11,547 bases of DNA from Hydrogenophaga sp. GTDB taxonomy: Bacteria > Pseudomonadota > Gammaproteobacteria > Burkholderiales > Burkholderiaceae_C. The translations under genes were made by a program, and so were the position numbers. The DNA lies in NCBI GenBank assembly GCA_030684755.1, contig JAUXXN010000192.1, forward strand, positions 1 to 11,547, in the 5' to 3' direction. Below are positions 4,036 through 6,627 of this stretch, one piece after another. Below the pieces are notes generated by a model. The model saw only the letters and a program-made list of their open reading frames with translations. It was not told where the DNA came from and searched no databases. Every line of letters starts with the position of its first letter. The first letter of the stretch is position 1.

Positions 4036-4728
4036 ATGAACCCAACAATGCCCCTGGATTCCGTGGCCTTTCTGGCCAGCACCGATGCCATCAACAGCGA
4101 CCATCCCAGTGTGGTGGCGTTTGCCCGGACCCACGCCACCGGCGCTACAGCGCAAGAGCAAGCGGTATCGATCTACCGCGCCGTGCGCGACCAGCTGCGC
4201 TACGACCCCTACCGCATCGATCTGTCGGCCCATGGCATGAAGGCCAGCACGGCCTTGCAGCAAGGCCATGGCTGGTGCGTACCCAAAGCGGTGGTGCTGG
4301 CGGCGGTGGCGCGGGCAGCGGGCATTCCGGCTCGGCTGGGCTTTGCCGATGTGCGCAACCACCTGTCCACCCAGCGGCTGCGCGACACCATGAAAACCGA
4401 TGTGTTTGCCTGGCACGGCTACACCGAGCTGTGGCTGGACGGCGCTTGGCGCAAGGCCACGCCGGCCTTCAACGTGGAGCTGTGCGACAAGTTTGGTCTG
4501 CTGCCACTGGAGTTTGACGGCGTGCACGACTCGCTGTACCACCCGTTTGACCGCGCGGGTCAGCGGCACATGGAATACGTGGCCGAACGCGGTCATTTTG
4601 ACGACCTGCCGTTGGCGCAGATTGCGGCCACGTTTGCCGAGCTCTACCCCGGCCTGCTGTCGGGAACAGCACCGGCCGGTGACTTTGCAGCGGATGCCGC
4701 GCGCGAGTCAGGCCGCGTTTCAGCTTGA
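4036..4728 (+). CDS. transglutaminase-like (papain-fold) family protein
   Basis: This 230-residue protein has a transglutaminase-like core. YRAVRDQLRYDPYRID (about 47-62) is the usual lead-in helix. GHGWCVPKAVVLAAVARAAGIPARLGFADV follows with the nucleophile Cys81, and AWHGYTELWLDGAW carries His127. Where classical members show a third-residue Asp (WVPVDPT-like), this one reads WRKATPAFN, so the Asp position by simple alignment is Thr142. I recall the same KATPAFN pattern in related proteins, so this is probably a subfamily trait. The C-terminal part (LEFDGVHDSLYHPFD, then FDDLPLAQI) is also typical of that subfamily. Whether it is a peptidase, an amidase or a cross-linker is unknown. An in-frame TAG at 4024-4026 makes 4036 the earliest possible start; no good Shine-Dalgarno precedes it. 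Its last 9 bases overlap the end of metW on the other strand. Confidence 0.87.
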   Translation: MNPTMPLDSVAFLASTDAINSDHPSVVAFARTHATGATAQEQAVSIYRAVRDQLRYDPYRIDLSAHGMKASTALQQGHGWCVPKAVVLAAVARAAGIPARLGFADVRNHLSTQRLRDTMKTDVFAWHGYTELWLDGAWRKATPAFNVELCDKFGLLPLEFDGVHDSLYHPFDRAGQRHMEYVAERGHFDDLPLAQIAATFAELYPGLLSGTAPAGDFAADAARESGRVSA

Positions 4729-5307
4729 AAAGCGAAACACCGCCGTGCTGGCAAGCAGGTTGGGCAGGCTGCGCACTTCGCGGCCTTCGTGCAGACCAAA
4801 GCTGTCTTCAATGGTGAGGCCGTTGCGCCGCGCCAGCACCTCAAAGTCGCGGTAGGTGCCCACGCGGATGTAGGGCGTGTCGTACCACTGGTAAGGCAGG
4901 CGTTTGGTCACCGGCATGTGGCCCTGCAACACGGCCAGGCGGTTGGGCCAGTGGGCAAAATTGGGGAACGCCACGATGCCGATGCGCCCCACGCGGGCGG
5001 TTTCCAGCAGCATGGTCTGGGCGTTGCGCAGGTGTTGCAGGGTGTCGATTTGCAGCACCACGTCGAAGGCGTCGTCGCCAAACATGGTGAGCCCGCCTTC
5101 CAGGTTGAGCTGCAACACGTTGACGCCGCGCTTGATGCAGGCGAGCACTTTGGCGTCATCAATTTCCACGCCGTAGCCGGTGCAGGCACGGGTGGTCTGC
5201 AGGTGGGCCAGCAAAGCGCCGTCGCCGCACCCGAGGTCGAGCACGCGGGAGCCTGGCGGCACCAGGCGGGCAATGGATTCCATCATGCTGGGTTCGGCCA
5301 TGGTCAT
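4720..5307 (-). CDS. metW: methionine biosynthesis protein MetW
   Basis: This 195-residue MetW has a class I methyltransferase-like fold. The SAM-binding type motif [16 protein letters not shown] is at about 20-35. The acidic end of strand 2, GVEIDD, is near 45-50, and [11 protein letters not shown] near 83-93. The MetW signature [35 protein letters not shown] occupies about 114-148. MetW is known as the partner of MetX, reported to support its activity, rather than as a proven methyltransferase. The gene follows metX with an ATGA overlap (metX stop TGA 5304-5306 inside the ATG 5305-5307), which implies translational coupling. A strong GGAGG lies only 3 bases before the first ATG but 9 bases before a second in-frame ATG at 5301. 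Translation may therefore really start at 5301 (193 residues). Regulation is shared with metX through the leader riboswitch. Confidence 0.94.
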
Positions 5308-6479
5308 TTTCCTCCCACGCTGGCGTGCACGGTGTGCGCAAAGTAGGCGCGTACGGCCTGGTGGTAGCGCGGGTCGTCGAGCAAAAAGGCGTCGTGCCCA
5401 TGGGGCGCGTCAATTTCGGCGTAGGTCACATCGCGGCCGTTTTCCAGCAGCGCCTTGACGATTTCGCGGCTGCGCTCGGGTGAAAAACGCCAGTCGGTGG
5501 TGAAGCTGATGAGCAAAAATTTGGCCCGGGCGCGGGCCAGCGCGGTGCTGAGCGAGCCGCCGTGCTCGCGCGCGGGGTCGAAGTAGTCCAGCGCGCGGGT
5601 GATCAGCAGGTAGGTGTTGGCGTCAAAGTACTCGCTGAACTTGTCGCCTTGGTAGCGCAAGTAGCTCTCAATCTGGAACTCAACGTCTTGGGTGCTGTAG
5701 CGGTAGGCAAGCTCGGCCACAGCGACAGGATCTTCACCATCGACCGCCCGCAGCTTTCGGCCAAATTTTTCGTTCATCACGTCGTCGCTCAGGTACGTGA
5801 TGTGCCCAATCATGCGTGCGATGCGCAGGCCGCGTCTGGGCAGGGTGCCCTCGCGCAGGTAGTGGCCGCAGCAGAAGTCGGGGTCGGTCACGATGGCGCG
5901 GCGCGCCACCTCGTTGAACGCGATGTTTTCGGCCGTGAGGTTGGGCGCGCTGGCCACCACCACGGCGTGGCGCACGCGCTCGGGGTATTGCAGCGTCCAG
6001 CTCAGTGTCTGCATGCCGCCCAGGCTGCCACCCATCACGGCGGCCAAGGTTTGAATGCCCATCACATCGAGCAGCCGGGCCTGCGCGTTAACCCAATCTT
6101 CCACCGTGACCACCGGAAAGTCCGCGCCCCAGGGTTGGCCCGTGGCCGGGTTGTTGTGGGTGGGCCCGGTGGAGCCAAAGCAGGAGCCCAGGTTGTTGAC
6201 GCCGATGACGAAATAGCTGTCGGTGTCCAGCGGCTTGCCTGGGCCAATCATGTTGTGCCACCAGCCTTCGCTGCGCGCCACTGGCTGGCCTTGCGCGTCG
6301 GCGTGGACGCCGGCCACATGGTGCGAAGCGTTGAGCGCGTGGCACACCAGCACCGCGTTGGAGCCCTCGGCGTTGAGCGTGCCGTAGGTTTCCACCACCA
6401 ATTCATAGGCGGGCAGCACGGCTCCACTGCGCAGTGGCAGTGGTTGGTCAAATCGGAACGTTTGGGGCGTGACGATCAC
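5304..6479 (-). CDS. metX: homoserine O-acyltransferase MetX (acetyl- or succinyltransferase)
   Basis: This 391-residue alpha/beta-hydrolase-fold acyltransferase performs the first committed step of methionine synthesis, acylating homoserine on its hydroxyl. The nucleophile elbow is MGGSLGGMQ with Ser152. The acid is Asp329 in [10 protein letters not shown] and the base His362 in PHGHDAFL. Other family blocks are [13 protein letters not shown] (45-57), [15 protein letters not shown] (73-87), [13 protein letters not shown] (95-107) and the SVAS-equivalent VVASAPN. Length is normal. Many proteobacterial MetX enzymes paired with MetW use succinyl-CoA rather than acetyl-CoA; I cannot decide this from the sequence. 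The start is a GTG at 6477-6479, supported by GGGGA seven bases upstream (6487-6491). It is first in the metX-metW operon and is preceded by a SAM-II-like aptamer and an intrinsic terminator, so it is probably repressed by S-adenosylmethionine. Confidence 0.95.
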
Positions 6480-6505
6480 TGGGCATTCCCCGCTGAGCAG
6501 GGTCC

Positions 6506-6559
6506 AAAAAACAAAAACCCGGCGCCGCCAACAACACGTGTTTCAAAGGCGAGGCCGGG
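6506..6559 (-). terminator. intrinsic terminator in the metX leader (expression platform)
   Basis: Read on the - strand, the arm at 6559-6548 (CCCGGCCTCGCC) pairs with 6529-6518 (GGCGGCGCCGGG). This gives a 12-position stem with one C-C mismatch and one wobble and an 18-base loop that contains the palindrome AACACGTGTT. It is followed at once by TTTTTGTTTTTT (6517-6506). On the + strand there is no U-tract, so it works only toward metX. It ends about 27 bases before the metX start codon and 15 bases before its Shine-Dalgarno. Because it lies between the aptamer and the gene, it is best read as the off-state hairpin of the riboswitch rather than the end of another gene. Confidence 0.82.
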
Positions 6560-6562
6560 AAT

Positions 6563-6616
6563 CCCCCCTTTAGCGGGATTTCTAAAGCGCCCGCAATCTG
6601 GATCAAATCGGCGCTG
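6563..6616 (-). promoter_or_regulatory. SAM-II (SAM-alpha) riboswitch aptamer upstream of metX
   Basis: On the - strand the stem AGCGCC (6615-6610) / GGCGCT (6591-6586) encloses a loop beginning GATTTGATCC and ending ATTGCG. It is followed by a short A-containing segment (TTTAGAAATCC) and then GCTAAAGGGG (6574-6565). The order matches what I recall of the SAM-II consensus: GCGC, GAUUUAACC, AUUGCA, GCGC, a joining strand with AAA, and GCUAAAAAGG. SAM-II is a compact pseudoknot in which the 3' purine-rich strand pairs back into the first loop and binds S-adenosylmethionine; it commonly sits before metX or metA. The gene downstream here is metX, and a terminator follows. Deviations: GATTTGA instead of GAUUUAA, and ATTGCG instead of AUUGCA. 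Covariance-model scoring was not possible. Confidence 0.82.
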
Positions 6617-6621
6617 GGGCG

Positions 6622-6627
6622 AGTATA
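6622..6627 (-). promoter_or_regulatory. candidate -10 box of the metXW promoter
   Basis: TATACT on the - strand would place transcription start at about 6614-6616, exactly at the 5' edge of the aptamer stem, as is common for SAM-II. No good -35 box lies at 16-18 bases. A perfect TTGACA at 6657-6662 is 29 bases away, too far for the same promoter. The call rests mainly on its position. Confidence 0.4.

What the first reader, a model, noticed from the sequence alone, without database searches (positions are those of the whole stretch)
6506..6627. SAM-II riboswitch plus terminator controlling metX-metW in a betaproteobacterium
Seen directly: from a TATACT box, the - strand gives the AGCGCC/GGCGCT stem, GATTTGATCC and ATTGCG loop pieces, then GCTAAAGGGG, all in SAM-II order, followed by a 12-position GC-rich hairpin with a T-tract just before the metX Shine-Dalgarno. 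From known biology: SAM-II aptamers precede metX/metA, mostly in alphaproteobacteria; a Comamonadaceae-type copy with a transcription terminator is less familiar. The leader also allows other helices: CTTTAG/CTAAAG, AATCCC/GGGATT, and CCCGCT or ATTCCC with the AGCGGGGAAT around the ribosome site. A second, translational level of control is therefore possible. The antiterminator pairing is not unambiguous to me.
Basis: partly seen in the sequence, partly recalled or inferred. Interest (0 to 1): 0.7.

Follow-up and report, generated by a model that had tools for sequence, protein, structure and literature searches.

The report
SAM-II riboswitch with terminator before metX
The stretch before the methionine gene metX is a SAM-sensing RNA switch of a known class (SAM-II) joined to a transcription stop signal; the type is known, but comparing relatives suggests which RNA strand flips the switch and probably explains an older report of an orphan RNA element in related bacteria.

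Summary
Window 6552-6624 (-) matches Rfam SAM-II (RF00521) at 35.8 bits (E 1.2e-6), 0.2 bits under the family cut-off; 22 same-genus genomes reach the cut-off. P1 and P2a covary; a strong hairpin and U-tract follow; the operon is metX-metW. SAM-II with terminators in beta-proteobacteria is in print (PMC2258182): a new member of a known kind. Added here: (1) the orphan 'metXZ' element of PMC4239095 is, by anatomy, genes and taxa, very probably SAM-II; (2) over 141 leaders the SAM-binding strand GCUAAAG is on average strongly complementary to the terminator's ascending arm, so it is the likely antiterminator strand; (3) leader-RBS pairing is not conserved. Against a clean story: the window copy has the weakest predicted antiterminator of 30 same-genus leaders. 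In passing: a divergent SAM-II-like leader precedes metK in the same genome.

The parts
6622..6627 (-). -10 box TATACT of the probable metX promoter (no good -35)
   Evidence: 28 of 30 same-genus leaders analysed; no sigma-70 pair found
6610..6615 (-). P1 5' strand AGCGCC
   Evidence: P1 paired in 98.1% of cells, 3 of 6 pairs with changes on both sides
6604..6609 (-). GATTTG of L1 (third strand of the P2 triplex in SAM-II, recalled); its last G covaries with the purine two bases before TTGC
   Evidence: 130 of 134 distinct L1 strings are G-G or A-A
6600..6602 (-). P2a 5' strand TCC, pairs with GGG 6564-6566 (one G-U)
6593..6596 (-). P2b 5' strand TTGC, pairs with GC(T)AA 6570-6574
   Evidence: never varies, so no covariation information
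6586..6591 (-). P1 3' strand GGCGCT
6563..6574 (-). GCTAAAGGGGGG: P2 3' strand (SAM bound) and candidate antiterminator strand (SAM free)
6552..6624 (-). Rfam SAM_alpha (RF00521) match, 35.8 bits (cut-off 36)
6560..6580 (-). hairpin AATCCC(6580-6575)/GGGATT(6565-6560), peculiar to the window copy among the same-genus copies listed, with GCTAAAGG of the P2 strand in its loop
6544..6554 (-). CCTCGCCTTTG: partner of the candidate antiterminator strand, in the terminator's 5' arm and loop
   Evidence: -11.2 kcal/mol duplex
6518..6559 (-). intrinsic terminator hairpin, -21.5 kcal/mol
6506..6517 (-). U-tract TTTTTGTTTTTT
6488..6502 (-). small GC hairpin between U-tract and start codon; overlaps the probable Shine-Dalgarno GGGGA (6487-6491)
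   Evidence: similar small hairpins in many same-genus leaders, mean z only -0.84
5304..6479 (-). metX, homoserine O-succinyltransferase (GTG start)
   Evidence: NF047916 638.2 bits, cut-off 560
4720..5307 (-). metW, overlaps metX by 4 bases
   Evidence: TIGR02081 227 bits, cut-off 189.5

Best explanation
A SAM-II riboswitch that turns metX-metW off by premature transcription termination. Transcription starts near P1 (inferred). When SAM is scarce, the strand GCUAAAGGGG is free of P2 and pairs with the ascending arm and loop of the terminator as it emerges, so RNA polymerase reads through (supported by comparison of relatives, not shown by experiment). When SAM is plentiful it locks P1 and the P2 pseudoknot (recalled SAM-II structure and biochemistry), which takes that strand away; the terminator then forms and transcription stops in the U-tract (inferred). 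Homoserine acylation, and hence methionine and SAM synthesis, would fall. In this particular copy the antiterminator is predicted to be weak, so it may lean more towards OFF than its relatives.
For: RF00521 35.8 bits, E 1.2e-6; 22 same-genus genomes over the cut-off. Alignment A1 (53 aptamers): 93.5% of cells paired against 87.8% in shuffles (0 of 500 as high) and at most 56.8% in slid versions; 5 pairs with double changes (3 of 500 shuffles as high). G-G/A-A purine covariation in 130 of 134 distinct L1 strings, of the kind PMC2258182 predicted for SAM-II (passages read; mapping mine). Terminator of dG<=-11 starting within 45 nt in 141 of 182 aptamers and in 74 of 84 leaders with a MetX homologue. 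GCTAAAGNNNNN against the terminator 5' arm+loop: -9.12 against -6.88 kcal/mol (sd 0.24) in dinucleotide shuffles, 0 of 60, in 71 representatives; P1, L1 and TTGCGGGCGC segments show no such excess. All 7 bases of GCTAAAG can pair in 37 of 141 own terminators against 3 of 379 other terminators on the same contigs. Prefix folding: 118 of 141 leaders have at least 4 expected antiterminator pairs before the descending arm emerges. In S. meliloti the metZ SAM-II leader was predicted to terminate on SAM binding, and its short RNA RZ rises under high-SAM conditions (PMC9373788, abstract and passages read).
Against: Score is 0.2 bits below the Rfam cut-off. The window copy is the lowest of 30 same-genus leaders for antiterminator pairs (0.2 expected; 0.4 with the prefix): AAUCCC pairs with GGGAUU, which does not block the terminator; the antiterminator is 1.2 kcal/mol above the minimum. 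The own-against-swapped test is modest in representatives (245 of 5000 swaps as good); among the 26 of 71 representatives with at least 6 of 7 pairs, bases +1 and +2 covary (14 and 49 of 2000) but +3 pairs less often than permuted (2000 of 2000). The overlapping segment AAATNNNGCTAA also has a signal with both arms (63 and 101 of 5000 swaps; 18 and 0 of 60 shuffles). Total L1/P2-strand duplex energy did not beat swaps (1929 of 5000), although specific P2a columns did. I saw no ligand-binding or termination data for this genus.
Confidence: 0.8

Rival explanations
1. The aptamer is SAM-II, but in this copy the switch is degraded or re-tuned: the hairpin AAUCCC/GGGAUU holds the P2 strand, no antiterminator forms, and the terminator acts more or less constitutively.
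For:: lowest of 30 leaders; giving the window leader the relatives' base at AAAT[G]CC brings the predicted antiterminator to 7.8 pairs at prefix 87 (3.9 at prefix 91); the relatives' GGGGAG and CGGTCTC together give 8.8 at both; GGGGAG alone 4.2 and 1.3. G016 carries a decayed metX aptamer (L242), so loss happens in the genus.
Against: Aptamer core fully intact; antiterminator duplex still -11.2 kcal/mol and only 1.2 kcal/mol above the minimum in a static model without pseudoknots or kinetics.
Confidence: 0.2
2. A distinct beta-proteobacterial metX/metZ leader class with another ligand (the orphan 'metXZ' element read as its own class).
For: PMC4239095 described it as novel and found SAM_alpha only in Rhizobiales and Rhodobacterales (passages and one section read); the window copy lies under the Rfam cut-off.
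Against: The anatomy that paper gives (regions 1-4 and 2-6 form a pseudoknot, then a terminator) is that of SAM-II P1 and P2; same genes and taxa: MetX homologues in the window's order, a MetZ homologue after Novimethylophilus (L033, Methylophilales recalled) and Nitrosospira (L044) aptamers. The core is that of SAM-II and 24 of 60 relatives pass the RF00521 cut-off. PMC1273637 lists Bbr (Bordetella bronchiseptica) among the organisms of its SAM-II figure (legend).
Confidence: 0.04
3. A second, translational level: leader sequences (CCCGCT, ATTCCC) sequester the AGCGGGGAAT ribosome site.
For: Complementarity exists in the window sequence; a small hairpin overlaps GGGGA.
Against: In 28 distinct same-genus leaders (29 usable of 32 given) the leader-RBS duplexes are weaker than shuffles (60 of 60) and no better than swaps (269 and 967 of 2000). 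The terminator lies between the partners.
Confidence: 0.07

Closest known systems
SAM-II (SAM_alpha, RF00521) riboswitch with intrinsic terminator, as in S. meliloti metZ (PMC9373788) and A. tumefaciens metA (PMC1273637)
   Same: P1, P2 pseudoknot, GATTTG/TTGC/GCTAAAG core, promoter just upstream, terminator downstream, methionine gene target
   Different: Scores much lower with RF00521: listed matches of 25.5 to 52.5 bits in the window's order (capped list) against up to 88.2 in genomes of the same phylum but other classes
'metXZ' RNA element of beta-proteobacteria (Leyn 2014, PMC4239095)
   Same: Six conserved regions, pseudoknot 1-4/2-6, terminator, metXW or metZ downstream, reported in 10 of 11 Comamonadaceae in its Table 1
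   Different: The paper did not link it to SAM-II and speculated on regions 3 and 4 as antiterminator; the data here point to the last conserved strand (GCTAAAG, which I take to be region 6). The identity is my inference: the alignment (figure, supplement) was not readable here
SAM-V and tandem SAM-II/SAM-V (PMC6061858, PMC9481103)
   Same: Nearly identical pseudoknot core and SAM contacts for SAM-II and SAM-V (passages read)
   Different: SAM-V is translational; this element has one aptamer and a terminator

Membership tests
SAM-II (RF00521) | Covariance score significant against chance | tested here: met
   35.8 bits, E 1.2e-6; E 2.8e-6 genome-wide
SAM-II (RF00521) | Rfam gathering score of 36 bits (an inclusion rule for annotation, not a structural feature) | tested here: not met
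   35.8 bits; 22 same-genus genomes do reach it
SAM-II (RF00521) | P1 stem with covariation | tested here: met
   98.1% of cells paired, 3 of 6 pairs with double changes in A1
SAM-II (RF00521) | P2 pseudoknot between L1 and the 3' strand | tested here: met
   P2a: 2 of 3 pairs with double changes, 75.5% of cells paired; P2b invariant; column pair -5/+3 z 6.6, -4/+2 z 4.3, of 15 scanned; total duplex energy no better than swaps
SAM-II (RF00521) | Homopurine G-G/A-A covariation between L1 positions (predicted in PMC2258182) | tested here: met
   130 of 134 distinct L1 strings; the mapping onto the paper's positions is mine
SAM-II (RF00521) | Upstream of methionine/SAM genes | tested here: met
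   metX-metW here; within 1.8 kb after 142 of 182 aptamers a MetX, MetZ/Y, MetH, MetK or MetN-like homologue (tblastn, E<=1e-8; some MetZ/Y-like hits are distant or only about 33% identical), 2 MFDC, 38 none of the references
SAM-II (RF00521) | Binds SAM and discriminates against SAH | not testable with these tools
   needs in-line probing or calorimetry
transcription-terminating riboswitch | Intrinsic terminator between aptamer and gene | tested here: met
   -21.5 kcal/mol hairpin plus U-tract
transcription-terminating riboswitch | Antiterminator that excludes both P2 and the terminator | tested here: inconclusive
   supported in relatives, weak in the window copy

The most novel reading that the evidence does not exclude
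Bacteria of this genus run a two-RNA SAM circuit: a transcriptional SAM-II switch at metX-metW whose ligand-contacting strand doubles as the antiterminator, and a divergent GAGUU-type SAM-II derivative, missed at Rfam's cut-off and acting at the ribosome site, in front of metK, a gene for which PMC4239095 looked for a regulator in beta-proteobacteria without success. The window's metX copy may moreover be a natural re-tuned variant in which a local hairpin competes with P2.
Probability: 0.6. Interest if true: 0.55.

Novelty: new member of a known kind. Interest (0 to 1): 0.4.

Why it matters
It ties an orphan RNA element (metXZ) to a known ligand class, names the strand that most likely does the switching, and shows that annotation at the RF00521 cut-off misses many copies: in the same 250 genomes of the window's order, 47 have a match over the cut-off and 117 at E<=1e-3, against 191 with a clade-trained model (any match, metK-type and tandem copies included, E-values rough). 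A specialist would find this useful rather than startling; the metK leader is the more surprising lead.

Tried and rejected
Translational control by leader-RBS pairing: tested and not supported. P1 or the TTGCGGGCGC strand as antiterminator (near the guess in PMC4239095): no excess complementarity, in 5 of 6 comparisons weaker than nearly all shuffles. Alternative pairing of GATTT with AAATC (regions 1+2 with 5 of that paper): not scored separately; P1 kept at least 4 expected pairs in 106 of 141 prefix folds. Post-terminator hairpin: mean z only -0.84, 10 of 28 at z<=-1, so no claim. Sign of the metK switch: static folding gave no answer (Shine-Dalgarno less free when locked in 4 of 21; mean free 0.11, locked 0.17). 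Clade-trained model R1 contains the window among its 53 sequences, so its 74.4 bits is not independent evidence. Rows dropped: 9 duplicate aptamers (191 to 182); aptamers without a terminator of dG<=-11 starting within 45 nt (182 to 141); near-identical leaders (141 to 71); one search used 30 of 32 and 28 distinct of 32 same-genus leaders. The pattern used for L031-L150 fixes GGGCGC, so those loci were left out of the P1 covariation count; A1 holds 53 of the 73 distinct aptamers listed.

Full report
What is there. On the - strand of the window, between a TATACT box (6627-6622) and metX (GTG 6479), lie in order P1 (AGCGCC/GGCGCT), GATTTG, TCC, TTGC, the strand GCTAAAGGGGGG, a hairpin of -21.5 kcal/mol and TTTTTGTTTTTT. 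The two genes are metX (homoserine O-succinyltransferase MetX model NF047916, 638.2 bits) and metW (TIGR02081, 227 bits), overlapping by four bases. The genome is an incomplete assembly (82.6% complete, 689 contigs). The genus is probably Hydrogenophaga, hence order Burkholderiales (inference): a same-genus contig (G014:C41, 22107 bases) has the length of a record titled Hydrogenophaga sp. (L076), and L076's aptamer does not appear in the list of distinct aptamers, that is, it duplicates an earlier one.

Is it SAM-II? Rfam at the curated cut-off reports nothing in the window. With a looser threshold RF00521 matches 6552-6624 at 35.8 bits, E 1.2e-6, cut-off 36; it is the only RF00521 match in the genome at E<=1e-3. 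42 of 60 relatives have a match at E<=1e-3; 24 of 60 are over the cut-off, 22 of them same-genus genomes. In an alignment of 53 aptamers found with RF00521 (A1), the SAM-II pairs I named are standard in 93.5% of cells (87.8% in shuffles, 0 of 500 as high; at most 56.8% in slid versions), with 5 double-changed pairs (3 of 500 shuffles as high). Of 15 column pairs scanned for P2a, -5/+3 covaries (104 of 145 paired against 77.2 expected, z 6.6) and so does -4/+2 (z 4.3). The last base of GATTT[GA] or GAGTT[GA] and the purine two bases before TTGC are G-G or A-A in 130 of 134 distinct L1 strings, the kind of purine pair that PMC2258182 predicted from SAM-II alignments (passages read; the mapping is mine). 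A less friendly test, total duplex energy of L1 with the 3' strand, did not exceed swaps (1929 of 5000).

How common. In 250 genomes of the window's order RF00521 finds 117 at E<=1e-3 but only 47 over the cut-off; a model trained on A1 finds a match in 191 of 250 (its E-values are rough, weak ones may be chance, and matches are not all metX leaders). Genomes of other classes in the phylum sample score up to 88.2 bits with RF00521. Of 20 places that I fetched from the R1 list (3 of them known from RF00521), 13 contain a MetX, MetZ or MetH homologue. Two beta-proteobacterial studies name the SAH riboswitch and, in what I read, no SAM-II: PMC7011215 (Herbaspirillum; its Rfam table was among the passages) and PMC4603805 (Burkholderia; passages only). 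This fits, but does not prove, that the cut-off hides these copies.

Link to an orphan element. PMC4239095 (one section and passages read) reports SAM_alpha only in Rhizobiales and Rhodobacterales, and a 'novel' metXZ element in beta-proteobacteria: six conserved regions, pseudoknot 1-4 and 2-6, a terminator, before metXW or, in three Methylophilales, a Nitrosospira and a Thiobacillus, metZ. The loci here show that architecture, and within 1.8 kb after the aptamer a MetX homologue comes first in 84 of 182 and a MetZ/Y-like one in 42, the latter including a Novimethylophilus (L033) and a Nitrosospira (L044) record. I conclude that metXZ is very probably SAM-II. [quoted passage not shown] The listings of my searches and the passages read show no paper that equates metXZ with SAM-II; most subscription papers are not in the library.

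How it switches. I took every aptamer's best terminator (141 of 182 qualify) and asked which leader segment is complementary to which terminator part. In 71 representatives, GCTAAAGNNNNN against the ascending arm and loop gives -9.12 kcal/mol, against -6.88 (sd 0.24) for dinucleotide shuffles (0 of 60) and -8.82 (sd 0.18) for terminators swapped between leaders (245 of 5000 as good). P1 5', L1, TTGCGGGCGC and P1 3' segments show nothing of the kind; the overlapping AAATNNNGCTAA has a weaker signal with both arms (63 and 101 of 5000 swaps; 18 and 0 of 60 shuffles). As an outside control, all seven bases of GCTAAAG can pair in 37 of 141 own terminators against 3 of 379 unrelated terminators on the same contigs; at least six in 70 of 141 against 58 of 379. 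Among the 26 of 71 representatives with at least six pairs, the next two bases covary with their partners (14 and 49 of 2000 permutations as good), the third does not (2000 of 2000). Folding each leader only up to the point where the descending arm starts to appear, 118 of 141 have at least four expected antiterminator pairs, median 8.8. So in most relatives examined one strand can be in P2 (with SAM) or in the antiterminator (without SAM), not both. PMC4239095 speculated on regions 3 and 4 for that part; the present data favour the last conserved strand. [quoted passage not shown]

The window copy is the exception. Its expected antiterminator pairs are 0.2, lowest of 30 same-genus leaders (32 given, 2 without a recognisable U-tract; next lowest 2.3). 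It reads AAUCCC where the other same-genus copies listed read AAUGCC, AAUACC or AAGUACC, which lets it pair with GGGAUU, and it has lost the GAGA/UCUC pairing of many relatives; the antiterminator is 1.2 kcal/mol above the minimum, and relatives' bases bring it back in silico to differing extents. The static model ignores pseudoknots and kinetics, so I read this as a possibly leaky or re-tuned copy, not as proof of loss. A decayed metX aptamer does occur in the genus (G016, L242).

Translational control is not supported: leader-RBS complementarity is below shuffles in 28 distinct same-genus leaders.

A second RNA in the same genome. The clade-trained model finds G000:C500:4173-4234 (-), 44.3 bits, just before metK. 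The same leader precedes metK in 19 of the 20 same-genus genomes (G001-G019; G020 had no match) and in G021 (L187). It keeps P1, TTGC and GCTAAAG and the A-A/G-G rule, but reads GAGTTA or GAGTTG in 20 of the 21 leaders aligned (L187 has GATTTG). Rfam: RF00521 was reported for it only in G021 and G006, below the cut-off, and the window genome's copy (L202) matches none of 4227 families at E<=0.5. By eye no U-tract terminator is present; instead a stretch after the aptamer can pair with the ribosome site, and this pairing covaries: -11.43 kcal/mol against -9.61 swapped (0 of 5000) and -7.34 shuffled (0 of 100) in 20 distinct leaders, one of them from another family (L252). Which way it switches I could not tell. 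PMC4239095 says that metK (with metY and metNIQ) had no known methionine regulator in beta-proteobacteria and that attempts to find one failed (passage); my one search on metK with SAM-II and Betaproteobacteria (15 papers) listed none whose title or abstract start describes this leader, and passages on metK in PMC2864571 and PMC9481103 concern other RNAs.

Verdict. Very probably a genuine SAM-II riboswitch with terminator; a new member of a known kind, with a clearer switching model than I found in print and a more novel neighbour at metK.

Noticed in passing
L202 (G000:C500:4173-4234 -); L187, L223-L241: Divergent SAM-II-like leader (GAGTTA/GAGTTG in 20 of 21) before metK in the window's own genome and 20 other same-genus genomes, with an anti-Shine-Dalgarno that covaries with the Shine-Dalgarno; RF00521 was reported for it only in two genomes, below the cut-off.
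   Followed up: partly
L048, L082, L070, L128, L148, L153, L156, L197, L209, L220: Tandem SAM-II copies, some first copies followed by a terminator, the second copy with GATTTA in all ten; tandem SAM-II is known (44 examples, passage of PMC9481103). In L070 and L197 the next gene is a small unnamed protein starting MFDC.
   Followed up: partly
L242 (G016:C2): Decayed metX aptamer (GATAGG and GCTAACG in place of GATTTG and GCTAAAG) in a 2.2 Mb genome of the same genus: a natural loss.
   Followed up: no
L004, L011: metX leaders of the genus whose terminator hairpin is no longer followed by a run of three or more T.
   Followed up: no
window 6488-6502 (-): Small GC-rich hairpin between the U-tract and the start codon, with counterparts of changed sequence in many same-genus leaders; only weakly better than shuffles.
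   Followed up: partly
L200 (G000:C75:4048-4170 -): SAH riboswitch (RF01057, 46.8 bits, over its cut-off) elsewhere in the same genome.
   Followed up: no
L036, L040, L104, L122: SAM-II-type aptamers before a MetN-like transporter ATPase gene; L036, L040 and L104 are titled Thalassospira, L122's title was not shown.
   Followed up: no
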